Origin: Gemmatimonadota bacterium
GTDB taxonomy: Bacteria > GCA-2686955
Length of the DNA stretch: 17,317 nucleotides
Assembly: GCA_002686955.1 (NCBI GenBank)
Contig: NYZA01000166.1
Location: 1 to 17,317 of the forward strand
Reading direction: 5' to 3'
A program made the translations under genes and the position numbers. The notes beneath the pieces were generated by a model. It did no database searches. It was not told the origin of the DNA and was given only the letters and a program-made list of their open reading frames with translations. This document shows, in pieces, positions 7,482 to 17,317 of this stretch (position 1 is its first letter; every line of letters starts with the position of its first letter).

Positions 7482-8554
7482 TCACCTTCCTGACACCACT
7501 TCTTGCGCCCGAGACTCCCCTGCACGCCGACGCCAGATCCCTCGGAGCAGCAAACGCCCGGCTCCGATCACCGGATCGATCGCAGCGTACATGACCGGCA
7601 CGATCACCAAGGTGAGGAAGGTGGCCACTCCGAGGCCCCAGATCACCGCGACTCCCATCGGTCCCCACCACTGACTCGATTCCCCGCCCACGATCAAGGC
7701 GTCGCCGAGACTTCCTTCGAGCAGGCGACCGAAGTCGAGCGAGAGGCCGGTAGTGAGGGGGATCAGACCGAGAATCGTGGTCACCGCCGTGAGAATCACG
7801 GGCCGAAACCGTGTCTTCCCGGCCTCGACGATCGCGTCTATCTTCTCGAGCCCGGAGACGCGCACCTTGAATACGTAGTCGAGCAACACGATTGCGTTGT
7901 TGACCACGATCCCCGTGAGAGAGATGACACCCACACCGGTCATAATGATCCCGAAGGGTGTGCGAGTGATCATGAGCCCGATGAAGACCCCGATGAGTGA
8001 CAGAATTACACTCGAGAGAATCACGAAAGGTACGGTGACCGAAGTGAACTGGGTGATGAGCACGATCAGAATCAGCATCAACGCGGTACCGAAGGCGTCG
8101 CTCGAGAACGCTTTCGCTTCCTCTCCGTCTTCGCTCTCTCCCGTGAAAGACAGGGCGTAGCCGGCTGGAAGCCGCAGATTCTCGATGTGACTCTGCGCTT
8201 CAGAGCGAAGGGCGTTGGCATTGAAACCCGTTGCGACATCCGAGCTCAGCGTGACAACCCGCCTCTCATCGATTCTGCGGATGGCGCCGAGTCCGGTATC
8301 GAAAGAGATATCCGCAAAGGCGGTGAGGGGAATCGTCGCGCCTTCATGGAAAACCGTGATCTCCTCGAGGTCTTCGATGCTCTGCCTGGCTCCGCTTCCG
8401 TGGCGCACGACGATATCGTACTCGTCCTCGCCGATTCGGAACTTGGAGATCTCGCTGCCCTGAAGAGCTGTACGCAATGTGTTCGCGACATCCCACGTGC
8501 GCAGCTCGTACCTTCCGACCTTGTCGGCATCGAGGCGCGCGCGGATCTGGGGCC
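7482..8554 (-). pseudogene. RND efflux pump inner-membrane subunit, C-terminal third only
   Basis: About 357 residues match the second half of AcrB/MdtC-type pumps. They include the porter subdomain (VANTLRTALQGSEISKFRIG, EDEYDIVVR), GFNANALRSEAQSHIENLRL, and four to five transmembrane helices with the family motif SLTGIVVNNAIVLLDYVFKV (helix 11 region) and RFRPVILTAVTTILGLIPLT. The C-terminal helix ends MYAAIDPVI. Full RND subunits are just over 1,000 residues. The N-terminal two thirds, including the proton-relay helix 4, are missing. At about 8555 the frame switches to a TolC N-terminus. In intact loci the order is usually outer-membrane channel, periplasmic adaptor, pump, so one deletion of more than 3 kb would explain the join. 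It cannot pump. Confidence 0.8.
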
Positions 8555-8979
8555 GTCCACGACAGGTCGAGGCTGGTCCTCCAGAACGACTGCGAAGGGA
8601 TCTCCTCGGGCGAGGGCAGGAACGAGAAGTCGCCGAAGAGGGAATCGAGGGGACTTTCCCCGCCGCCGCCGAAGGTGGCGTCGAGGGCGAAGCTGGGGTC
8701 GCGGGAGCGGATCCACGATCCATTGGCTTCCAGCGTGGGCAAGGCGCCGGCCGACGCTTGCCAGATCAGCGCGCGGGTGAGGTCGAGCCCTCGCCGCTCG
8801 GCGAGCAAGGCCGGATTCGCGTCCAACGCCTCGTCGACGCATTGCCCGAGGCTCAACACCTCGTCGGATCCGGCGATAGCCACAATCCTGTCTTGGCCCG
8901 CTCGGGCGTCGAAGGGCTCGTTGTCCTTCGAGGTGTGGTGAGGCGCGGGCGGCCGCACCCGAGCCGCCACCCCCCCCAC
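8555..8979 (-). pseudogene. TolC-family outer-membrane efflux protein, N-terminal fragment
   Basis: From about residue 38 the frame reads SDEVLSLGQCVDEALDANPA, then LLAERRGLDLTRALIWQASA and GALPTLEANGSW. That is the first coiled-coil hairpin and first beta-strands of a TolC/OprM-type channel, where the helix starts with a 'sl.ea...al..np.l' pattern. It ends SQSFWRTSLDLSWT at position 8555, where the RND reading frame takes over. A normal protein has about 430-500 residues; about 105 remain. No signal peptide is visible: the nearest start is GTG 8979-8977, in a low-complexity G-run just after the TPR gene, so the 5' end may be lost as well. Together with the RND remnant it marks a deleted tripartite efflux operon. 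Confidence 0.7.
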
Positions 8980-8982
8980 GAA

Positions 8983-9573
8983 TCAGTTGAGCCGATCCAG
9001 CTCCCTCAACCGCCGCCGGGCCCGATCGCCGTATTCGTCGTCCACATCGACCAGAGCCTCGAGCTGCTCGCGCGCCTCGTCGGTCTGACCCTGCCGCAGA
9101 AGCACGTGGTGGAAGCTCCAGCGTAGCCAGGACTCTTCCCAGTCCGACGCGTGTTGAATCAGCTCCGTGAAGCGCTCCTTGGCCTGCTCGTACTGACCGT
9201 TGAATACCAGGTAGAGCGCGAGGCGATGCTCTTCGCGCACCGAACCCTCAAGCATAGCCGTGTCTTCCTGCTCGCCGCCGACCGAGCGGGTCTGGGTCGC
9301 GAGCTGACCGACCGAAAGGATCTGCGAGGCCTCGTCGAGAAAGCTCTCGAACCAGGCGAGGATCTTCTCGCCTACATCGCCACTTCGCGCCGTCGTCCTC
9401 TTCATCGTGGCTTCGGCGAGGTTGCGGAACCGCTTCTCCACATTCTCGGGGTTCAGCCCCGCCGAGCGGAGCAGCGCGTCGACCTCCTCTTCCGATTCCC
9501 TGGGCGCGGCATCGAGAGCGTCGTAGATCCGAGCGAGCTTATCTACGGCCGTCTTAGGCTTTTTCGATTTCAT
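8983..9573 (-). CDS. TPR-containing partner protein encoded with the sigma factor
   Basis: This 196-residue cytoplasmic protein has no signal peptide or membrane segment. The N-terminus (1-60) is charged and helical, with DKLARIYDALDAA and EEEVDALLRSAGLNPENV. The C-terminal half (about 118-190) has TPR-like helix pairs: ALYLVFNGQYEQAKERFTEL, then VLLRQGQTDEAREQLEALV. I do not recognise a named family. It lies 10 bases after the sigma factor gene. The sigma stop codon TAG is part of its Shine-Dalgarno (TAGGAGGGTCGACATG), so the pair must be co-transcribed and probably coupled. That layout is where an anti-sigma factor or sigma regulator is often found. The protein has no zinc-binding anti-sigma motif, so a regulatory role is inference from position. 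It appears intact. Confidence 0.75.
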   Translation of the reverse strand: MKSKKPKTAVDKLARIYDALDAAPRESEEEVDALLRSAGLNPENVEKRFRNLAEATMKRTTARSGDVGEKILAWFESFLDEASQILSVGQLATQTRSVGGEQEDTAMLEGSVREEHRLALYLVFNGQYEQAKERFTELIQHASDWEESWLRWSFHHVLLRQGQTDEAREQLEALVDVDDEYGDRARRRLRELDRLN

Positions 9574-9583
9574 GTCGACCCTC

Positions 9584-10192
9584 CTACGCCACCGTGATGT
9601 CGATCCGGCGAAGGCGCCTCAACCGGTTGTTGATCTCTCGCACCGGCTGGTCCAGCCTCGACGCCAGATGCCTCGGCTTCGGCTCGCAGCCATCGAGCAG
9701 AGCGTCCAGGACCTCTCCCAGCTCCGGCTGGCCGGCGACCGCCTCTTTCAAGCACTCGATACGGCGATGGGCGGCCGCCTCCTGCTCCTCGCGCAATAGC
9801 TCCGACTCCGGATCGGCGATCGACCTGCCCGAAATCTCCTGGCCCCTGAGATCGACCCGATCGGTGAGCTCGCTTCCGTCCTCCGATTGTCGAGTCGGCC
9901 GCTCGTAGCGAGCGGAAGCGCTCTTCGCAAGCGCATCGATCATGCCGTTCAGATGCATCATGAAGAAGATCAGAGGGTCGGGGTACCGTTTTCGATCCCA
10001 CTTCCGCGCACCGCTCCAATACCTGACCATGAGCTCGCTGACGATGTCCTCCGGCCCCTGTCCTTTCGGCCAGAAGTTGCCGCGAAGTCTCGGGTAGCGT
10101 CTCGCGCGCCGGATGGCGTGCGCGACCAGGGTCTTGCCAATGAGGCCCCAGTCCACATCGGTCGATGGATCCAGGGCAAGCTCTTCGGTCAT
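9584..10192 (-). CDS. ECF-like sigma-70 family RNA polymerase sigma factor
   Basis: This is a 202-residue protein. Residues 20-97 fit sigma region 2: AHAIRRARRY, the acidic GPEDIVSELMVRYW, and FFMMHLNGMIDALAKSASAR, which would contact the -10 element and the clamp helices. An acidic linker covers about 100-140. Residues 143-197 fit region 4, with a helix-turn-helix in EPKPRHLASRLDQPVREINN, ending in a basic LRRLRR. The length is normal for ECF sigma factors and no extra domain is seen. The start is ATG 10192-10190, behind a G-rich leader (GGGGGGTGAG), with a good promoter upstream. It is co-encoded with the TPR partner. The nearby secreted-protein genes share an upstream element that it may recognise. 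The family call rests on region layout rather than a close match. Confidence 0.75.
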   Translation of the reverse strand: MTEELALDPSTDVDWGLIGKTLVAHAIRRARRYPRLRGNFWPKGQGPEDIVSELMVRYWSGARKWDRKRYPDPLIFFMMHLNGMIDALAKSASARYERPTRQSEDGSELTDRVDLRGQEISGRSIADPESELLREEQEAAAHRRIECLKEAVAGQPELGEVLDALLDGCEPKPRHLASRLDQPVREINNRLRRLRRIDITVA

Positions 10193-10226
10193 CTCTCACC
10201 CCCCGCTGAAGTTGGGCTGCTACCAC

Positions 10227-10255
10227 GTTACCGGTTGGTGCGCGGAGTCTGTCAA
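10227..10255 (-). promoter_or_regulatory. Sigma-70-like promoter of the sigma factor operon
   Basis: On the minus strand TTGACA (10255-10250) is followed by a 17-base spacer and GGTAAC (10232-10227), about 35 bases upstream of the sigma start. The -35 box is a perfect consensus and the -10 is moderate. This suggests housekeeping transcription, because the shared GRCGAGAAA-N9-CTCGGTAGT element is absent here. Confidence 0.5.
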
Positions 10256-10293
10256 TGGGGAATGTGACGATCTCTCGAAGGCGGCCCGTCGGC

Positions 10294-10716
10294 CTACTTC
10301 GCCAGGAGCGTTTTCGTTGTGTCGGATGCATCGGACCGGGTCCTGTAGGAGTTGACGCGCGCATCGATCAGCCGAAGCGCTACGATCCGCGGATCATGGC
10401 GGCATTCGGCGCGGGGGCAGATCTTCGCGACGAAGACCGCATCACCGGCTCCGACCAGCACCTCGGCGATGGCCGGTTTGGCATAGGAAGCCTGAGCGGG
10501 CAGGATCGAGGGTCTGTCCACCGAAAGGGTCGCGATCACGGTGGCCGTTTCGAGATGGTTCAGCAGGTACACCTCCTCCGCCAGGCAATCCTCCGATCTC
10601 GCGGGGTCGACTCGCCGGCTCAGGCTCAGGTTCCGCAGCTTCGGAGGGCTGGACGGCTGCCCGATCGCGACGGTTGCGATCGCCGCGAGGGCGATGGCGA
10701 GGGTCTTGATCTTCAT
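10294..10716 (-). CDS. Secreted protein of unknown function, 140 aa
   Basis: The start is ATG 10716-10714 with GGAGAG six bases upstream. Longer in-frame starts run into unrelated low-quality sequence. MKIKTLAIALAAIATVAIG is a Sec signal peptide, probably cut around residue 19. The mature part has three cysteines (C44, C100, C105), one of them in AKICPRAEC, and a valine-rich middle with LLNHLETATVIATLSVDRPS and AEVLVGAGDAVFVAKIC. This looks like a small beta-rich secreted domain that may hold one or more disulphides. I do not recognise the family. It is the first gene upstream of the sigma operon on the same strand, and it carries a copy of the shared upstream element, so it probably belongs to the same regulon as the 97-aa proteins and the beta-helix protein. 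Confidence 0.65.
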   Translation of the reverse strand: MKIKTLAIALAAIATVAIGQPSSPPKLRNLSLSRRVDPARSEDCLAEEVYLLNHLETATVIATLSVDRPSILPAQASYAKPAIAEVLVGAGDAVFVAKICPRAECRHDPRIVALRLIDARVNSYRTRSDASDTTKTLLAK

Positions 10717-10771
10717 GATTCTCTCCGGTTCTTTTCGATTGTCTGTTCGTGTTGTTCGTCTCATGCCCCTA

Positions 10772-10798
10772 CTACCGAGGGGGAGCTCTTTCTCGCCA
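10772..10798 (-). promoter_or_regulatory. Shared upstream element, copy 1
   Basis: The minus strand reads GGCGAGAAA, nine variable bases, CTCGGTAGT. It ends 55 bases before the start of the 140-aa secreted protein gene. The other three copies precede the other three secreted-protein genes with the same 9-base spacing. It is either a promoter for an alternative sigma factor or a conserved 5'-leader element. Here CCCT-CGGTAGT-AGGG could also form a small hairpin. Confidence 0.6.
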
Positions 10799-10833
10799 TT
10801 CACGGAGTCGAATCCGCCGATCCCCAACGCAGC

Positions 10834-10885
10834 GAGGCGGCCCCGGGATGGAGCCGCCCCAAGGGCGCCGAAAGGCGCGCGCCCT
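10834..10885 (-). terminator. Double hairpin downstream of the 97-aa gene
   Basis: GGCGGC/GCCGCC pair around a loop of about 11 bases, next to AGGGCGC/GCGCCCT with a 10-base loop. Both lie between the 97-aa gene stop and the next gene on the minus strand. There is no long U-run. The same block is repeated at 15149-15191. Confidence 0.45.
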
Positions 10886-10898
10886 ATTCCCCCTCGAT

Positions 10899-11192
10899 TC
10901 AGCGACTGGGTTTGACGGGGGCTGCATAGGCTCGTCTCGTCGGAGGCGGGGAGTAGCTGGGGAAAGCCCGTGCCTCGACCACGTGTCGGCGCGCCCCACC
11001 GTCCCGCTGATTGAGGGCGATGTTGTAGGCCGCGGTCAACCACGGCATCGCCTGCAATCCGGGCCAGATCCGCGGATTGAGAATGACGAGATCGCGGGGA
11101 TTTCGGGCCTCGGCCGTGTTGGTGGTGAGAGCCTGACCCGCGGTCGTCAGAGCCGCGAGAGCGATCGTTGCGAGGGCGATTCGAGTCTTCAT
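10899..11192 (-). CDS. Secreted 97-aa protein, paralogue 1
   Basis: The start is ATG 11192-11190 behind AAAGGAG. A Sec signal peptide, MKTRIALATIALAALTTAGQ, is probably cut near residue 22-30. The mature part opens NPRDLVILNPRIWPGLQAMP and WLTAAY, has a basic middle (RRHVVEARA) and ends in a proline-rich tail, SPPPTRRAYAAPVKPSR. I know no family for it. It is nearly identical to the gene at 15204-15497 over residues 1-60 and diverges in the tail, so the tail may evolve faster or bind different partners. It lies back to back with a TPR/CHAT gene start and carries the shared upstream element 73 bases before its start codon. Small size, a signal peptide and duplication suggest a secreted effector or signal, but no activity can be read from the sequence. 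Confidence 0.7.
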   Translation of the reverse strand: MKTRIALATIALAALTTAGQALTTNTAEARNPRDLVILNPRIWPGLQAMPWLTAAYNIALNQRDGGARRHVVEARAFPSYSPPPTRRAYAAPVKPSR

Positions 11193-11264
11193 GTCCTGTC
11201 TCCTTTCGGTGATTCGGAAAAGGTGTTCCGAATCGATGTGGGGATGTGTTGTTGTTCACTCCCG

Positions 11265-11291
11265 ACTACCGAGGCACCCGCATTTCTCGCC
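11265..11291 (-). promoter_or_regulatory. Shared upstream element, copy 2
   Basis: GGCGAGAAA-N9-CTCGGTAGT on the minus strand, exactly 73 bases from the start of the first 97-aa gene. The downstream leader (AACAACAACACATC, then ATCGATTCGGAACA) is nearly the same as in copy 4. Confidence 0.65.
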
Positions 11292-11550
11292 GGCCAAACG
11301 GTGCCGTGGGCCAAATTGGATCGAGGACAAGGACGAAGAGGGGGGGGAGACCGAGTATTGGCTTGCCGATCTCCGCCATCCGCGGCCAGGCCCGCCCAGC
11401 GGCTCCGCATCCCCGAACGCGACGCCCTGCATGCGCGCGAGGCGGGGGAGCGGAGCGCGCCTCACCCTGCTCCCTTCCGCCCGATTCGGGAGCCCGGCCA
11501 CGCATTTTGGCCCTTCGACACTCGAGGGCCGCAACGTCCCGTCGAAGCTC

Positions 11551-11582
11551 CGGGGAGAACGCGCTACACTTGCCGCGACAGA
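11551..11582 (+). promoter_or_regulatory. Conserved leader/-10-like site before the CHAT remnant
   Basis: CGGGGAGAACGCGCTACACT followed by TGCCGCGAC recurs almost unchanged at about 16000-16027 before the intact TPR gene. TACACT (11565-11570) could be a -10 box, but no convincing -35 is seen. In this copy an inserted element pushes the site from 33 to about 212 bases away from the start codon. Confidence 0.35.
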
Positions 11583-11594
11583 TCGGCCGCGAGG

Positions 11595-11770
11595 CCAGGA
11601 TCCCCCACCCAATGCGTGCCCGAGCCGTGCGAATCTTGGTCTTAGTCGAGGAACCGCACCGATTTGAGCTCAGGCGTAGTGGGGCTACGTTGAGCATCAA
11701 ATCGGTCCGAGTGACGAAGGATAAGGCCAAGAGGCGCATGGCGAAGCGCGTATTGGGTGGTGGATCCTGG
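11595..11770. mobile_element. 176-bp palindromic MITE-like element with GAGG target duplication
   Basis: The ends are inverted repeats: CCAGGATCCCCCACCCAATG on the left matches CCAGGATCCACCACCCAATA read inward from the right. The arms stay complementary, with a few mismatches, to a loop near 11682, including a perfect 10-bp pair ACCGATTTGA (11658-11667)/TCAAATCGGT (11697-11706). The element is bordered by GAGG on both sides (11591-11594 and 11771-11774). The paralogous site at 16030-16051 reads CCGCGAGGGACC with a single GAGG, which is an unoccupied target. There is no ORF, so it must have been mobilised in trans. It sits between the conserved leader and the start codon of the CHAT remnant and would form a huge hairpin in the mRNA leader. 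The transposase family is not identified. Confidence 0.85.
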
Positions 11771-11782
11771 GAGGGACCTTCC

Positions 11783-12233
11783 ATGGACAGCAACGCGCTA
11801 CTGGCGCATCTACTGGATCTGGACGCGCAAGGCCGCAACAAGGCACTGCGCCCCTACGTCGAGGAGCGGATCGACTCGTGGGGGCCCGATGTCTTCGAGG
11901 CGGTCGCGCGATCGCTCAGTGGGACGCGGGAGACGAGACGGAGCGTTGGGCGGCGGAGGAGCAACGGCGCGGACTACCCGGATTGGGGCCTCTGTCTGAA
12001 GAGGCGCTGGCGGGGATCTCCGATCTCGGCTCTCGCGTCCGCCAAGAGGGCGATGCTGGCCGAGGCTCGGCAATCGACCGGCTCGATCAAGCAACGCAAC
12101 GGCAGGTCCAAGTTCCCTCTGCCCCGGGCCCACCCCTACTACTGGGCGGGGTTCGGGATTCACGGAATATCGGCGATGGAGGGGGCCGGTCTCGATTGAG
12201 CTCGGGCGCCTGCGCTGCGGCGGGCCGGGATGA
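11783..12233 (+). pseudogene. TPR-CHAT protein, internal-deletion remnant
   Basis: ATG 11783 opens MDSNALLAHLLDLDAQGR and YVEERIDSWGPDVFEAVA, the same N-terminus as the gene at 16052. Near 11905 the frame shifts by one base relative to that gene: AQWDAGDETERWAAEEQRRG continues in another frame. Near 12015 sequence joins directly to the C-terminal end of a CHAT domain (SPISALASAKRAMLAEA, then SKFPLPRAHPYYWAGFGIHG), matching residues 328-377 of the intact CHAT gene at 13931. The TPR array and both catalytic residues are gone. An extra G in a G-run near 12180 shifts the tail as well; the homologous stop would be TGA 12231-12233. It is a clear relic of a full-length TPR-CHAT gene whose upstream region also took a palindromic insertion. 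Confidence 0.8.
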
Positions 12234-12257
12234 GAGTCGGAAGACACCGTACGCAGG

Positions 12258-12284
12258 GAGGCGGCCCCGGTGAAGGGCCGCCTC
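12258..12284. terminator. Bidirectional hairpin between CHAT remnant and beta-helix gene
   Basis: A perfect 10-bp stem, GAGGCGGCCC/GGGCCGCCTC, has a 7-base loop and sits between convergent genes. It has no U-run on either strand but is strong enough to act both ways. It is related in sequence to the hairpins at 10834 and 15149. Confidence 0.55.
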
Positions 12285-12319
12285 ATGGGTGTGGAAGCCG
12301 CGCGTGCCCTGGACGGGGG

Positions 12320-13693
12320 TCAGATTCCCCAGTCGCTGTTCGGTCCTCCGAATGCTCCGATGTCGTTCACGGCGGATCCTCTCGCGAGGCCACCCTCATC
12401 CTCGAAGTCGGCTTGCGGCTCGCCGCTATCGATCGCTTCGGAGCGGTCGGCGAGGCCGAGTCCGGCGAGCTGAGCCCACGCCACCGAGTAGACGTCGATC
12501 GATTGAGGGATGACATCTGGGAGCTGATCGGCGTGAAGCTCGGCCACGAAACCAGGATCCGCATTGAACAGATTCGTGTTGTTCAACATCGCATTCGATG
12601 CTTCGTTGGATCCCCTGTCGAATAGATTGTAACGAGCGAAGAGCAGTGTGTTCGGCACCTCCGCATCACGGAAGAGGAGATCCTCGTGCGACTCATCGCC
12701 GGCCCCATTGTCGGCAAAAATATTGTTGCGCACATCCGCGACGACCGGAACACCTTCGCAGTTCCCGTCGAGCAACCGGAGGACCACCGGACTGATCTTG
12801 AGTCCAGATGCATGTTGCCAGGAGAAGACGTTGTTGTAAACACGCAGAGGTTCGCTGCCGCGCATTCCCTCGATGCTTAGACCGTAGCCTGGATCTTCCG
12901 TGCCGAGAACCACGCAGTTTTCGAAACGCACATTCGAGCCAAGTTGAAAGTGGAATCCGACGTTGTTGTTCTTGACGATGATCGAATGCCGAACCTCGAA
13001 GTCCTCCGCCGCGGTCATATGAACGCCCTCATCGCCGTTGAATCCGATGAAGGTGTCGTAAATGCCGCCGGTGGTGCGGTAGAGGTTCATTCCATCCACG
13101 AGGCAGCTCGTTATGGAACAACCCGACACCGTGACACGAGATGTGGCTTGGCCCAAGAGCTCCTCACTGACCGCACCCCAGTTTCCGTCGCATCGGTAGG
13201 CCCCGGTACGGGTTCCGATCTGCATGCCGATCCGACAATGGCGAATGGCAACTGAGTCGAGCTGTAGGTCGAGCAAGACATCGTCGGTCTCGTAATCCGC
13301 GGTGTAGGCACGAATTCCGTACCGCTCTTTTCCCTGGCCGTCGATCGAGACACCCCGGATTCGAACCGTTGCCGGCGCGCCGGAGGCGGCATCGATGGTG
13401 ATGATCGGATCGGTGGTGGCGTCACCGGAGATCACCGGTGATGGGGCGGCGGGATGGGCGGCGAGCGTCACTTCGTGCAAACGAGATGTGTCGATCCGGA
13501 TCGCTTCGTCATAGGGCGAAACGGAACCGTCGATCACCAGAGTGTCGCCGGACGTCGCGGCATTCAGAGCGCGCTGGATCGTCGCGAATCCGTCGGGAAC
13601 GCGAAGTGTAGCCGCGTGAGACGGAGTGTGAAGACCGGCGAGTGCGAGGGCCGCGGTGAGGGCGATCGAGTTCGGGGAAGTTGGGGTTTGCAT
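12320..13693 (-). CDS. Secreted right-handed parallel beta-helix protein
   Basis: This is a 457-residue protein. Residues 1 to about 28 are a signal peptide (ALTAALALAGLHTPSHAA). The mature part begins LRVPDGFATIQRALNAATSG, the usual entry of PbH1/pectate-lyase-fold proteins. It then shows many short beta-helix rungs such as ISGDATTDPIITID, RVTVSGCSITSCLVDGMNLY, FEVRHSIIVKNNNVGFHF and RFENCVVLG. The C-terminus has SEAIDSGEP and NDIGAFGGPNSDWG, a frequent ending in such surface proteins. These folds bind or cleave polysaccharides, and I see no clear lyase active site. The start is ATG 13693-13691 behind AGGAAAA. The shared upstream element lies 73 bases before the start, linking it to the small secreted proteins. 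Family call secure; substrate unknown. Confidence 0.8.
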   Translation of the reverse strand: MQTPTSPNSIALTAALALAGLHTPSHAATLRVPDGFATIQRALNAATSGDTLVIDGSVSPYDEAIRIDTSRLHEVTLAAHPAAPSPVISGDATTDPIITIDAASGAPATVRIRGVSIDGQGKERYGIRAYTADYETDDVLLDLQLDSVAIRHCRIGMQIGTRTGAYRCDGNWGAVSEELLGQATSRVTVSGCSITSCLVDGMNLYRTTGGIYDTFIGFNGDEGVHMTAAEDFEVRHSIIVKNNNVGFHFQLGSNVRFENCVVLGTEDPGYGLSIEGMRGSEPLRVYNNVFSWQHASGLKISPVVLRLLDGNCEGVPVVADVRNNIFADNGAGDESHEDLLFRDAEVPNTLLFARYNLFDRGSNEASNAMLNNTNLFNADPGFVAELHADQLPDVIPQSIDVYSVAWAQLAGLGLADRSEAIDSGEPQADFEDEGGLARGSAVNDIGAFGGPNSDWGI

Positions 13694-13765
13694 TGTGATT
13701 TTCCTGTGTTGAGAATTCGATGTGGTGCGGCACGTGGGTGGGTGATTGGTGGCTGTTCGCTCCTG

Positions 13766-13792
13766 ACTACCGAGGCCGCCGTGTTTCTCGTC
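13766..13792 (-). promoter_or_regulatory. Shared upstream element, copy 3
   Basis: GACGAGAAA-N9-CTCGGTAGT on the minus strand, exactly 73 bases from the beta-helix gene start. The flanks differ from copies 2 and 4, so conservation of this core is not just a by-product of the long duplication. Confidence 0.65.
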
Positions 13793-13930
13793 ACGGCGCT
13801 CGAAGGCGTGGCTGCGGCCCGGGAGGGAAGGGGTGCGCCGGGCTCGGGGGGAGCGCGAGAAACCGCGAAGCGGGGCGTGAGTGGCCGAAGGGGTGCGCCG
13901 GGATGGCGAGGGACCGTGGGGAGGCGATCG

Positions 13931-15124
13931 ATGGAGCGCGATCGGTTACTGGCGCGGCTCTTGGATCTCGATGCGGAGGGCCGCGTCGAGACCGCACTCA
14001 AGCCGTTTGGACGCTTCTGTGAATCGCGAGATCCGGCAGCTCTCCTGGCTCTTCTTCCGGATCGCCTGAATGCGCTATCGGACGATGTTCTGGGTCCCGC
14101 GCTCCCGTATCTCGACGGCGCCGAGCGGCTCCTGCTCGTCCCCTCCGGCGCGCTGTACGACGTCCCCTTCGAAATGCTGGTGCTGTCTTCATCCGACGAC
14201 AGTATTTCTTCGCGCGAAGTCGAAGCAGCGGATCATTTCGCAAGAGCGGAGTACGTCGCCGACCGCTTCGAGATCGCCTACGGCCCAGCGGCCACCCTCC
14301 TCGATCCCGAGCTGCGCGCTGTCCGGGAGGCGCCCGACCAGACCGTCGCGGAGCCCTCCGCGCCCGCCGTCCTCGCCCAGGGCGATCCGATCTACGAGGA
14401 GCTCGCGGGCGCGCCGGCTCTCGCCCGCTCATCGGGGCGCGGCGTTCACCTGGCTCGCCTGCCCGGCACTCGCAAAGAGGTCCAGGCCATCAAACGTGTC
14501 TTCACCAACGTCCGCGCACTGATGCGTTCCCGCGCGCGCGAATCCGCCTATCGGAAGCACGCGCCCTCGTCCGACATCGTTCACCTGGGCTGTCACGGTG
14601 TGATCGACACCGACGAACCGGGCTACTCCGGTGTGCTCCTTTCGCCCGGCGCACGTAGAGACGAAGATCCGTTCTTGCAGGCCTACGAGATTGCCCGTGT
14701 CCACCTGGAGCGGCGTCCACTCGTGGTGGTTTCAGCCTGCGAGGTCGCCGGCGGGAAGCGCTCCGCGGCGGAAGGGCTATTGGGGCTTACGCGGGCCTTT
14801 GCGCAAGCAGGCGCCGGCTCCGTCGTCGCATCCACCTGGCCGGTCGACGACGAGGCGACGGCGAAGTTGATGACACATTTATACGAGGCGATCGCGACCG
14901 GCGCGGCCGATCCGATCTCAGCCCTCGCCGAAGCCAAGAGGGCGATGCTGGCGGAGGCTCGGCGAAGGGCCGGCTCGCTCGAGCACCGCAAGGGCTCGTC
15001 CAAGTTCCCTCTTCCTCCCGCCCACCCCCACTACTGGGCGGGGTTTGGGATTCATGGGATTGCGGCGATGGGGGGGCCGGTCTCGATTGAGATCGGGCTC
15101 CTTCGCGGGGGCGGACCGGCATGA
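13931..15124 (+). CDS. CHAT-domain caspase-like protease without TPR array
   Basis: This is a 397-residue protein. The first 25 residues (MERDRLLARLLDLDAEGR) match the N-terminus of the TPR genes at 11783 and 16052. Almost at once it enters a CHAT domain: LLLVPSGALYDVPFEML (67-83), LARLPGTRKEVQAIKRVF, IVHLGCHGVIDTDEPGYSGV with catalytic His222, VVVSACEVAGGKRSAAEGLL with catalytic Cys270, GAGSVVASTWPVDDEATAKL, and HYWAGFGIHG near the end. The His/Cys dyad is complete, so it should be an active clan CD peptidase in the cytoplasm. Relatives usually carry hundreds of residues of TPRs before CHAT, so this one may be a natural short form or an in-frame deletion product. ATG 13931 was chosen by N-terminal homology; a longer open frame upstream is antisense to the beta-helix gene. 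The Shine-Dalgarno is weak. Confidence 0.85.
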   Translation: MERDRLLARLLDLDAEGRVETALKPFGRFCESRDPAALLALLPDRLNALSDDVLGPALPYLDGAERLLLVPSGALYDVPFEMLVLSSSDDSISSREVEAADHFARAEYVADRFEIAYGPAATLLDPELRAVREAPDQTVAEPSAPAVLAQGDPIYEELAGAPALARSSGRGVHLARLPGTRKEVQAIKRVFTNVRALMRSRARESAYRKHAPSSDIVHLGCHGVIDTDEPGYSGVLLSPGARRDEDPFLQAYEIARVHLERRPLVVVSACEVAGGKRSAAEGLLGLTRAFAQAGAGSVVASTWPVDDEATAKLMTHLYEAIATGAADPISALAEAKRAMLAEARRRAGSLEHRKGSSKFPLPPAHPHYWAGFGIHGIAAMGGPVSIEIGLLRGGGPA

Positions 15125-15148
15125 GAGCAGGAAGATCCCGAACGTAGC

Positions 15149-15191
15149 GAGGCGGCCCCGGGATGGAGCCGCCTCAAGGGCACGCGCCCTT
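15149..15191. terminator. Double hairpin between CHAT gene and second 97-aa gene
   Basis: Perfect 8-bp stem GAGGCGGC/GCCGCCTC (15149-15175), then AAGGGC-ACGC-GCCCTT followed by one more T (15176-15192). It lies 25 bases after the CHAT stop and 12 bases from the convergent stop, so it probably serves both genes. Confidence 0.6.
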
Positions 15192-15203
15192 TGCCTCCCC
15201 GAT

Positions 15204-15497
15204 TCACCGACTGGGTAGGACGGGGACAGCGTAGGCTCGTTTCGGCGGAGGCGGTGGGCAGCTCGGAAGCGCCGGTGCCTCGACCATGTCTCGGCGCACC
15301 GCACCCTGCCGCCGGGCGAGGGCGATGTCGTAGGCCGCGGTCAACCACGGCATCGTCTGCAATCCGGGCCAGATCCGCGGATTGAGAATGACGAGATCGC
15401 GGGGATTTCGGGCCTCGGCCGTGTTGGTGGTGAGAGCCTGGCCTGCGGTCGTAAGGGCCGCGAGGGCGATCGTTGCGAGGGCGATTCGAGTCTTCAT
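15204..15497 (-). CDS. Secreted 97-aa protein, paralogue 2
   Basis: Same length as the gene at 10899-11192 and identical to it through residue 47, then at 49-56. The start is ATG 15497-15495 behind GAGAGGAGAAAGGAC. It has the same signal peptide, then NPRDLVILNPRIWPGLQTMP and WLTAAYDIALARR. The tail differs (MVEAPALPSCPPPPPKRAYA, VPVLPSR) and gains a single cysteine at residue 80, but keeps the length and the proline/basic character. It is convergent with the intact CHAT gene and divergent from the TPR gene at 16052. The shared element sits 73 bases upstream. Strong conservation of signal peptide and first mature part, with an in-frame variable tail, argues that both copies are or were recently translated. 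No function is recognised. Confidence 0.7.
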   Translation of the reverse strand: MKTRIALATIALAALTTAGQALTTNTAEARNPRDLVILNPRIWPGLQTMPWLTAAYDIALARRQGAVRRDMVEAPALPSCPPPPPKRAYAVPVLPSR

Positions 15498-15569
15498 GTC
15501 CTTTCTCCTCTCGATGATCCGGAAATGTTGTTCCGAATCGATGTGTGGTTGTGTTGCTGTTCACTCCCG

Positions 15570-15596
15570 ACTACCGAGGCACCCGCGTTTCTCGCC
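15570..15596 (-). promoter_or_regulatory. Shared upstream element, copy 4
   Basis: GGCGAGAAA-N9-CTCGGTAGT on the minus strand, exactly 73 bases before the second 97-aa gene. It is nearly identical to copy 2 and its flanks. Confidence 0.65.
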
Positions 15597-15645
15597 GGCC
15601 AAAGGTGTCGTGGGCCGAATTGGATCGAGGACGAAGAGGGGGGGA

Positions 15646-15943
15646 GACCGAGCATTGGCTTGCCGATCTCCGCCATTCGCCGCCAGGCCCGCTCAGCGGC
15701 TCCGCTCCCCCGAACGCGACGCCCTGCATGCGCGCGAGGCGGGAGTGCCGAGCGCGCCCCACCCCGCTCGACCTCCTCGGCCGGTCTGGAGAGGTGGGTG
15801 GCCGAGCGTGGATCGAGCGGAGTGGGGCGGAACGCGCTGATCTCCATCGCTCGGCGGGCAAAGAGGGCGTCGCGTGCGGGGATGCGGAGCCGCTGGGCGG
15901 GCCTGGCGGCGAATGGCGGCAGCCCGCCGTCCAGTGCTCGGTC
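15646..15943. repeat. 298-bp near-palindrome
   Basis: GACCGAGCATTGG at the left end matches CCAGTGCTCGGTC at the right end, read in reverse. The phrase GCCATTCGCCGCCAGGCCCG near the left recurs inverted near the right. Inner pairs include GCCCCACCCCGCTCGA (15756-15771) with TCGAGCGGAGTGGGGC (15813-15828), and CTCGGCC (15776-15782) with GGCCGAG (15800-15806). The centre is near 15791. The homologous spacer at 11349-11500 has only the left arm. It fills most of the 550-base gap between the secreted gene and the TPR gene, where I see no gene. Confidence 0.75.
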
Positions 15944-15999
15944 CCCACGGGAATCCCTCAGGTTCAAGTCTCGGTGCCGCGAATTGTCTCATCGAGGCT

Positions 16000-16027
16000 C
16001 CGGGAGACCGCGCTACACTTGCCGCGA
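16000..16027 (+). promoter_or_regulatory. Conserved leader/-10-like site before the TPR gene
   Basis: CTCCGGGAGACCGCGCTACA followed by CTTGCCGCGAC closely matches the site at 11551-11582. TACACT (16014-16019) may be the -10 box, with the start codon 33 bases downstream. Conservation between copies is the main evidence; no -35 is evident. Confidence 0.35.
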
Positions 16028-16051
16028 CGGATCGGCCGCGAGGGACCTTCC

Positions 16052-17317
16052 ATGGACAGTGACGCGCTGCTGGCGCATCTTCTGAAGCTCGACGCGCAAG
16101 GGCGTCACGGGTCATCGCGCCCCTATGTCGAGGAGCGGATCGATTCGTGGGGGCCCGAGGTCTTCGAAGCTGTCGCGGTCGCTCAGTGGGACGCGGGAGA
16201 CGAGACGGAGCGGTGGGCGGGGGAGGAGCAGCGGCGGGGACTGCCGGGGCTGGGCCCTCTGTCGAAGGCCGTGCGGGCGGGGATCGATGAGGGGCGCAAG
16301 AAGGCGGAAACGGGTGGGCGCGGGGTATTGGGCGGGCGCGTGAGGTCGATGAAGGGCGCCCGGGAGGGTGTGTTGTCCGCCGGCGACCTGGCGATGGTGG
16401 AGATCGGGGGCGACGAAGTCACCTCATCGGCCGAGGCGGCGATGCTGCGCTGGGAGGCGTGGCAGCGGATCGAGGATGTGGTTTTCGCCAAGGTCGTCGA
16501 GCGCATATCGACCGGCACCGAGCGCGACTGGACGAGGGTGCGCCTCGGTCGCGAGATTGCTGCGCTTCTACGTGGGACGGCTGTAGAGGGGATCGAGATC
16601 TGCGGCCTCGCGGCGAATGCCACGGCTCTGGGAGGGTGGCTTCTCGCGCGGGGTAGGGGTCTGGTCGAACCCTTCTTGGCGGGGCTCGAATCCGCTGATT
16701 TCGGGGATCTTGGCGCCTCCCGTGGGGCCGCGGTGGCGATCGTCGTCGCGAAGATGGAGGGGACCACGGGGCGAAACGAAGAGGCGAGATGCAGGCTCGA
16801 GGCCATGGCGGAGCAGGTGCGGGGAGGGCGATGGGCAACAAGAGCTTCGATCGCCCTGTGCGGCCTTGTCTGTGAGTCGGTCGGCCCGGCACATGCTCTG
16901 GGAGCGATCTCGGAGGCTCCGGAACAGGCGCGAGCCCACCGCGATCGTCGCGGGTTGGCGGATGCCCTGAGGAGCCTGGGGCTCCTGCATCACGAGACCG
17001 GCTCGCCAGATCGCGCGCGGGAGCTCTTCGAGTGCGCGCTCGAGATCCATGGAGAGGTGGGGAATCGCCGAAGCGAGGGGGTTGTGCTCGGGAACCTGGG
17101 GAACCTGCGCAAACTGACCGGCTCGCTCGATCGTGCACGAGAGCTCTATGAGTCCGCGCTCGAGATCCACCGAGAGGTGGGAGATCGCGCGGTGGAGGGA
17201 ATTGCGCTCGGGAACCTGGGGACTCTGCACCACGAGACCGGCTCGCCCGATCGCGCGCGGCGGCTCTACGAGGCGATGGACTTGTGCCTGGAGTGCAAGG
17301 CGTGCAAGGCGGAGTGC
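16052..17317 (+). CDS. TPR-repeat protein (TPR-CHAT type), runs off the window and ends in an Fe-S motif
   Basis: Open for 422 codons to the window edge. ATG 16052 has GAGGGACC as a weak Shine-Dalgarno. The N-terminus (MDSDALLAHLLKLDAQGR, YVEERIDSWGPEVFEAVA) matches the CHAT-remnant gene, so a CHAT C-terminus would be expected. Residues 40-300 are helical and unassigned, with AQWDAGDETERWAGEEQRRG and VRLGREIAALLRG. From residue 311 there are 40-residue TPR units with HETGSPDRARELFECALEIH and EGVVLGNLG. In the third unit the sequence breaks off into LYEAMDLCLECKACKAEC: C412, C415, C418 and C422 form the CxxCxxCxxxC 4Fe-4S motif typical of FAD/Fe-S oxidoreductases of the glycolate/D-lactate oxidase type. 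That does not belong in a TPR and suggests a junction near 17270. Confidence 0.75.
   Translation, partial: MDSDALLAHLLKLDAQGRHGSSRPYVEERIDSWGPEVFEAVAVAQWDAGDETERWAGEEQRRGLPGLGPLSKAVRAGIDEGRKKAETGGRGVLGGRVRSMKGAREGVLSAGDLAMVEIGGDEVTSSAEAAMLRWEAWQRIEDVVFAKVVERISTGTERDWTRVRLGREIAALLRGTAVEGIEICGLAANATALGGWLLARGRGLVEPFLAGLESADFGDLGASRGAAVAIVVAKMEGTTGRNEEARCRLEAMAEQVRGGRWATRASIALCGLVCESVGPAHALGAISEAPEQARAHRDRRGLADALRSLGLLHHETGSPDRARELFECALEIHGEVGNRRSEGVVLGNLGNLRKLTGSLDRARELYESALEIHREVGDRAVEGIALGNLGTLHHETGSPDRARRLYEAMDLCLECKACKAEC
16985..17284 (+). repeat. 120-bp tandem repeat encoding TPR units
   Basis: Units start at 16985, 17105 and 17225 (CTGCAT, CTGCGC, CTGCAC) with exact 120-base spacing and share GAGACCGGCTCGCC or close variants, GATCG-GCGCG and CTCGGGAACCTGGGG. 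They encode 40-residue TPRs. High DNA identity between units suggests recent expansion or homogenisation. The third unit is cut short near 17270-17284. Confidence 0.75.

What the first reader, a model, noticed from the sequence alone, without database searches (positions are those of the whole stretch)
9584..17317. Possible CHAT protease / sigma factor / secreted-effector system
An ECF-like sigma gene coupled to a TPR partner is followed by four secreted-protein genes that share one upstream element, alternating with TPR/CHAT genes. A CHAT gene here (13931-15124) has an intact His222/Cys270 dyad. CHAT proteases are known to cut partner proteins that hold sigma factors inactive, as in the type III-E CRISPR Craspase with Csx30. 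I infer that CHAT cleavage of a regulator (perhaps the 196-aa TPR protein at 8983) frees the sigma factor, which then switches on the secreted genes. No CRISPR or Cas gene is present, so the trigger would be different.
Basis: partly seen in the sequence, partly recalled or inferred. Interest (0 to 1): 0.75.

Follow-up and report, generated by a model that had tools for sequence, protein, structure and literature searches.

The report
CHAT protease linked to sigma-factor switch
Outside any CRISPR system, a caspase-like protease gene lies next to a gene-switching sigma factor and that sigma's probable inhibitor, and the pairing recurs in other genomes with other proteases, which suggests cells swap proteases onto a standard "cut the inhibitor, free the sigma" switch.

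Summary
The ECF-type sigma (9584-10192), its TPR partner (8983-9573), four secreted-protein genes with one shared upstream element, and the CHAT ORF with His222/Cys270 are all present. Two corrections: 13931-15124 is a TPR-less derivative of a TPR-CHAT gene, and 11783-12199 is a decayed remnant. The complete-type copy (16052 on) runs off the contig.

The coupling is real. All four CHAT loci of this genome sit by a sigma gene; two (C8, C245) carry diverged paralogues of the whole set. In 37 CHAT loci from other genomes, 12 have an ECF-like gene within 1.2 kb (2.6 expected).

The sigma-partner pair also recurs without CHAT, followed by a CapP-type M78 peptidase; CapP is known to cut a transcriptional repressor. 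The partner's N-terminal segment is conserved; its C-terminal part changes with the protease.

Best reading: the partner is a cytosolic anti-sigma and TPR-CHAT inactivates it, as Csx29 does Csx30. Cleavage and regulation of the secreted genes remain inferred. The element is local to this contig.

This is not type III-E CRISPR: no RAMP gene in the (84.5% complete) assembly, no detectable Csx30 similarity. It is a new variant of known CHAT-ECF associations (ECF54, Craspase).

The parts
8983..9573 (-). 196-aa sigma partner, candidate cytosolic anti-sigma: N-terminal helical segment conserved in other sigma-linked partners, C-terminal TPR half
   Evidence: TPR_19; paralogues on C8 and C245; N-terminal profile 22.7 bits against at most 17.3 in 16,000 shuffles; all-helical model
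9584..10192 (-). ECF-type sigma factor, 202 aa
   Evidence: paralogues
10294..10716 (-). 140-aa predicted secreted protein, no family
   Evidence: shared element upstream
10771..10794 (-). shared upstream element copy 1 (78 nt before the ATG)
10899..11192 (-). 97-aa predicted secreted protein, copy 1
11265..11288 (-). shared upstream element copy 2 (96 nt before the ATG)
11783..12199 (+). remnant of a TPR-CHAT gene (start and CHAT tail only, frameshifted)
12320..13693 (-). 457-aa predicted secreted right-handed beta-helix protein
   Evidence: Beta_helix 2e-11
13766..13789 (-). shared upstream element copy 3 (96 nt before the ATG)
13931..15124 (+). CHAT protease ORF lacking the N-terminal and TPR regions; His222/Cys270 present
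15204..15497 (-). 97-aa predicted secreted protein, copy 2
15570..15593 (-). shared upstream element copy 4 (96 nt before the ATG)
16052..17317 (+). 5' part of the full-type TPR-CHAT gene, cut by the contig end
   Evidence: TPR; similar to C8 TPR-CHAT, 31% over 316 aa, E 1e-27; last ~45 nt probably an assembly chimera

Best explanation
This is a protease-controlled sigma switch. Shown or strong: 9584-10192 encodes an ECF-type sigma; 8983-9573 is its dedicated partner; the pair is genetically tied to TPR-CHAT protease genes and to secreted-protein genes. Inferred: the partner is a soluble anti-sigma whose N-terminal segment holds the sigma and whose TPR tail presents it to the TPR-CHAT protease. 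On an unknown cue the TPR-CHAT protein cleaves or unlocks the partner, the freed sigma binds RNA polymerase, and it transcribes the neighbouring secreted-protein genes, possibly through the GAGAAA-N9-CTCGGTAGT element. The working protease here is most likely the full TPR-CHAT protein that starts at 16052; the CHAT-only ORF at 13931 is a derivative.
For: Sigma identity. Linkage inside the genome: 4 of 4 CHAT loci by a sigma gene. C8 has beta-helix, sigma, partner in a row, divergent from TPR-CHAT; C245 has TPR-CHAT, secreted LTD protein, sigma, partner in one direction. Linkage elsewhere: 12 of 37 CHAT loci from other genomes have an ECF-like gene within 1.2 kb, 2.6 expected, P 4e-8; several have a zinc-finger anti-sigma in the same run, one with a TPR tail (L112). 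Partner as inhibitor: the same sigma-partner pair stands before an M78 peptidase, CapP-type by PADLOC, and CapP is known to cleave the repressor CapH (PMC13373217). The partner N-terminal segment is shared across protease types while the C-terminal part differs. Precedent: Csx29 cleaves Csx30, which inhibits CASP-sigma (PMC10028731).
Against: No interaction, cleavage or transcription data. The three CHAT-type partners come from one genome, so co-variation of partner tail and protease type is confounded by ancestry. The C245 partner scores only 9.5 bits with the N-terminal profile. The element is absent from C8 and C245 and its parts are spaced more tightly than usual for ECF promoters (own knowledge). 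No orthologous four-gene set was found in 386 other genomes; in the one relative of the same family no close sigma homologue was found, and contigs end beside two of its three CHAT genes.
Confidence: 0.45

Rival explanations
1. The CHAT protease acts on the sigma itself to switch it off (the kind of control proposed for group ECF54), and the TPR partner is an adaptor that delivers the sigma to the protease rather than an inhibitor.
For: Proteolytic control without an anti-sigma was proposed for ECF54, whose neighbourhoods hold subtilase, carboxypeptidase and CHAT proteins (PMC8999054). TPR tail in the partner and TPR in the protease.
Against: Several CHAT-ECF loci do carry an anti-sigma-like gene. 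The CapP loci point to cleavage of an inhibitor by analogy.
Confidence: 0.2
2. The sigma-partner pair is a real switch, but the CHAT protein acts on something else, for example the secreted proteins or a separate signalling target, and only shares its regulation.
For: TPR-CHAT is divergent from or adjacent to secreted beta-helix or LTD genes at C8, C166, C245 and, in the related genome, at C603. CHAT genes can stand without a recognisable sigma: 25 of 37 control loci.
Against: The secreted proteins are predicted to leave the cytosol, whereas the TPR-CHAT starts at C8 and in the window show no signal peptide by eye.
Confidence: 0.2
3. The locus is a decaying tandem duplication: duplicated promoter regions and gene pieces with no current switch.
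For: Remnant 11783-12199, TPR-less 13931 ORF, duplicated 97-aa genes; other broken genes on the same contig (7482-8979).
Against: Sigma, partner and beta-helix ORFs are intact, and the catalytic dyad and the element are kept exactly. Paralogous sets exist on C8 (complete) and C245 (protease gene cut by the contig start). This rival concerns this copy, not the system.
Confidence: 0.15

Closest known systems
Craspase / CASP (type III-E CRISPR: Cas7-11, Csx29 TPR-CHAT, Csx30, CASP-sigma)
   Same: TPR-CHAT protease, ECF-type sigma and a sigma partner in one locus; same proposed order of events (PMC10028731)
   Different: No Cas7-11 or other RAMP gene in this genome assembly; the partner is 196 aa with a TPR tail and matches no PDB chain by sequence (Csx30 is in a deposited structure, 8EEY, according to PMC10028731); trigger unknown
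ECF54 neighbourhoods with CHAT, subtilase and carboxypeptidase proteins
   Same: ECF sigma next to CHAT genes without CRISPR (PMC8999054); C187 has subtilase, ECF, zinc-finger-like protein and TPR-CHAT
   Different: The review describes ECF54 as controlled without an anti-sigma; the window sigma has a dedicated TPR partner. Group membership could not be scored here
CapH + CapP (DNA-damage-activated controller of CBASS and Bub operons)
   Same: Protease removes a transcriptional repressor; a CapP-type peptidase stands next to the same sigma-partner pair in other genomes
   Different: CapH is a DNA-binding repressor; here a sigma and partner stand in its place, and in the window the protease is CHAT
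EACC2-caspase neighbourhoods with ECF sigma and a DUF1822 TPR protein
   Same: Caspase-fold protease, ECF sigma and TPR protein together (PMC8195603)
   Different: Different caspase family and domains; no EACC or TRADD-N domain was recognised here

Membership tests
Type III-E CRISPR Craspase/CASP | Cas7-11 (RAMP domains) present | tested here: not met
   no PF03787 match in G000 (assembly 84.5% complete); four control genomes ring
Type III-E CRISPR Craspase/CASP | TPR-CHAT protease with His/Cys dyad | tested here: met
   complete TPR-CHAT at C8 (1130 aa), window full-type copy cut by the contig end
Type III-E CRISPR Craspase/CASP | Partner homologous to Csx30 | tested here: inconclusive
   no match to any PDB chain below E 0.1; a very distant relation is not excluded
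Type III-E CRISPR Craspase/CASP | Protease cleaves the partner | not testable with these tools
   needs an in vitro assay
ECF sigma factors | Regions 2 and 4 only, sigma-like fold | tested here: met
   sequence scores are below curated cut-offs, so it is a divergent member
ECF54 | Assignment by the ECF group models | not testable with these tools
   no ECF group models in the libraries
ECF54 | CHAT, subtilase or carboxypeptidase genes in context | tested here: inconclusive
   CHAT yes; subtilase only at C187, which carries a different sigma
Zinc-binding anti-sigma (zf-HC2) | HxxxCxxC zinc motif in the partner | tested here: not met
   no zf-HC2 match, and the 196-aa sequence contains no cysteine
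CapH/CapP controller | CapP-type M78 peptidase | tested here: not met
   none among the window ORFs scanned; present at L032 (PADLOC capP E 7e-55)

The most novel reading that the evidence does not exclude
There is a cassette of ECF sigma plus small anti-sigma whose inhibitor tail and protease are exchanged together (TPR tail with TPR-CHAT; helical tail with CapP; another tail in G568). It would control secreted genes in one lineage and ubiquitin-like immune operons in others, and type III-E CRISPR would have recruited such a CHAT-sigma switch rather than invented it.
Probability: 0.3. Interest if true: 0.78.

Novelty: new variant of a known kind. Interest (0 to 1): 0.6.

Why it matters
Craspase was presented as an RNA-guided protease acting on a sigma inhibitor. 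If CHAT proteases widely control ECF sigmas without CRISPR, that wiring is older and more general, and the non-CRISPR loci give small testable systems. [quoted passage not shown]

Tried and rejected
Genome-wide regulon by the shared element: rejected, only four exact copies, none at the paralogous loci. My first element pattern was mis-written and missed even the window copies. Element as conserved RNA structure: no common fold; z about -2.3 only in the two duplicated 97-aa leaders, where a separate hairpin dominates, and -0.3 and +1.0 in the others; no Rfam match. Sigma homologues in GTDB contigs by back-translated patterns: none, and the second alignment was not searchable. Plasmids: one weak hit. 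Weak sigma hits in G077, G127 and similar: G077 is an ordinary SigH-like gene without CHAT or partner nearby; hits around E 1e-7 had no credible partner, M78 or CHAT gene next to them. Csx29 and Csx30 by sequence: no match. A consensus sigma-70 promoter before the sigma operon: a TTGACA is there by eye but the scan finds no promoter. The structural search for the partner returned mostly generic TPR proteins.
Full report
WHAT IS THERE. The window is one whole contig (C166, 17,317 bases) of a 4.28-Mb, 270-contig, 84.5% complete genome. Only one other genome of its family is held; all other relatives sampled share only the domain. Reading leftward from 10,192 come an ECF-type sigma and, about 10 bases on, a 196-aa TPR protein. 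To their right, four leftward ORFs with signal-peptide-like starts alternate with rightward members of one TPR-CHAT family in three states: remnant (11783-12199), CHAT-only (13931-15124) and 5' part cut by the contig end (16052-17317). The CHAT-only protein carries His222 and Cys270. It begins with the same ~20 residues as the 16052 protein and then jumps to CHAT, so it has lost the N-terminal and TPR regions.

THE SIGMA. Sequence scores are weak for the window protein (sigma70-ECF superfamily 7e-5, below cut-off) and better for its C245 paralogue (2.5e-9). The AlphaFold2 model (mean pLDDT 77; two confident helical domains and a disordered linker) finds almost only sigma factors in the PDB, with modest Foldseek E-values. 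Domain-wise it aligns to sigma region 4 (3mzy Z 8.9, 67 residues, 1.7 A) and region 2 (5uxx Z 8.1, 79 residues, 2.8 A). Z values near 8 are not decisive for helical proteins, but the rows shown are nearly all sigma factors.

THE SHARED ELEMENT. GAGAAA-N9-CTCGGTAGT stands 96, 96, 96 and 78 nt before the four start codons, identical at all 15 fixed positions. Because the two 97-aa genes are 87% identical duplicates, this counts as three independent instances. With up to two mismatches the genome holds two further hits, no more than the reversed-pattern control. Weight-matrix scans find nothing above shuffles at C8, C245, C187 or three CHAT loci of the related genome. The leaders share no RNA fold. 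It behaves as a local DNA element, such as a promoter or operator. That this sigma reads it is inference.

SAME SET ELSEWHERE IN THE GENOME. The genome has four CHAT loci. The sigma has two paralogues at this sensitivity, at C8 and C245 (E 9e-32 and 3e-9), each in a CHAT locus. C8: secreted beta-helix protein, sigma, 174-aa TPR partner in one row, divergent from a complete 1130-aa TPR-CHAT. C245: TPR-CHAT, secreted LTD protein, sigma, 176-aa partner, all one way (Pfam). The partners are related to each other (window-C8 E 1.7e-11; C8-C245 2.9e-6). The fourth locus, C187, has a subtilase, a different ECF sigma, a protein with an HxxxCxxC motif, then TPR-CHAT. Its counterpart in the related genome G001 keeps sigma, CxxC protein and TPR-CHAT (TPR-CHATs 44% identical over 841 aa). 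The other two G001 CHAT genes lie on contigs that end next to them; one is divergent from a secreted beta-helix gene as at C8.

SAME LINKAGE IN OTHER GENOMES. From a search of 145 genomes (41 with CHAT) I took 37 CHAT loci outside the own family. Thirteen ECF-like ORFs were found by home-made profiles, 12 of them within 1.2 kb of a CHAT gene, where 2.6 would be expected if spread evenly over the flanks (P 4e-8). The 1.2-kb limit was set after seeing the loci, three of the hits score only 15-17 bits, and one (L156) may belong to a neighbouring gene instead, so 'about a quarter to a third' is the fair statement. Several loci have a zinc-finger anti-sigma in the same row (L112, L126 by Pfam; L148, L151 by eye). 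L112 joins a zf-HC2 domain, a transmembrane-like stretch and a TPR tail, next to a TPR-CHAT with a signal-like start.

SAME SIGMA-PARTNER PAIR WITH ANOTHER PROTEASE. Searching with the sigma alignment led to G176 (E 3e-14) and then G457, G567, G568, G495 and G029. In G176, G457, G567 and G495 the sigma is followed by a 129-143-aa protein and then an M78-type peptidase; in G029 the middle ORF was only partly found. The G176 peptidase is CapP by PADLOC (7e-55), and beside it lie multi-ubiquitin/E2 and E1/JAB genes; E1/JAB-like genes also lie near the G567 and G029 copies, by eye. CapP is known to cleave the repressor CapH and to control CBASS and Bub operons (PMC13373217). In G568 the partner has another C-terminal part and the next ORF, cut by the contig end, has no Pfam match; a Lon-like reading of it is only by eye. 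A profile of the N-terminal segments of these non-CHAT partners scores 22.7 bits on the window partner and 21.7 on the C8 partner, against a best of 17.3 in 16,000 shuffles; C245 scores 9.5. So the N-terminal segment follows the sigma while the C-terminal part changes with the protease, as expected if the former binds sigma and the latter meets the protease. Ancestry confounds this, since the CHAT type comes from one genome.

MECHANISM. I put 0.45 on: partner = soluble anti-sigma; TPR-CHAT inactivates it; sigma then drives the neighbouring secreted genes. Sigma identity and genetic coupling are shown; inhibition, cleavage, trigger and targets are inferred. The element would be the output promoter only if this sigma has a specificity different from its paralogues.

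COMPARISON. It works like Craspase (PMC10028731) but is not a member: no RAMP gene in the assembly and no Csx30 similarity found. [quoted passage not shown] In the open library the only paper that holds both 'CHAT domain' and 'anti-sigma' is the CASP paper, so a CHAT-linked anti-sigma outside CRISPR seems undescribed there; subscription papers were not searched.

Noticed in passing
L032:9525-11333, L042:8205-9980, L043:7073-8885, L045:6703-8510, L046:6927-8720: ECF-like sigma, small partner and M78 (CapP-type) peptidase in a row, in three cases beside E1/E2/JAB ubiquitin-like genes: looks like a sigma-based controller in which a sigma and partner replace CapH.
   Followed up: partly
L112:8195-12952: ECF sigma, then an anti-sigma of zf-HC2 + transmembrane-like stretch + TPR tail, then a TPR-CHAT with a signal-like start: CHAT could act as a periplasmic site-1 protease on a membrane anti-sigma.
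   Followed up: no
window 17275-17317: The TPR frame breaks off into 'MDLCLECKACKAEC', typical of Fe-S oxidoreductases and not of TPR; no second copy in the genome. Probably an assembly chimera at the contig end.
   Followed up: partly
window 7482-8979: Pieces of a TolC-like outer-membrane gene and the end of an AcrB-like pump gene (by eye) are joined with frame breaks, as if the region between them had been deleted.
   Followed up: no
window 10819-10866, 12243-12290, 15134-15181: Three copies of a G+C-rich hairpin (such as GAGGCGGCCCCGGGATGGAGCCGCCTC) at gene 3' ends, two of them between converging CHAT and secreted genes; possibly a two-way terminator.
   Followed up: no
window 11346-11473, 15643-15769, 15820-15946: A ~128-nt sequence occurs three times, the third copy inverted (75%); a possible small dispersed repeat that may have driven the local rearrangements.
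   Followed up: no
L011:2785-9176 and L108:6280-10513: A different ECF sigma with a CxxC protein and TPR-CHAT is conserved between the two genomes of this family; a subtilase gene precedes it at L011.
   Followed up: partly
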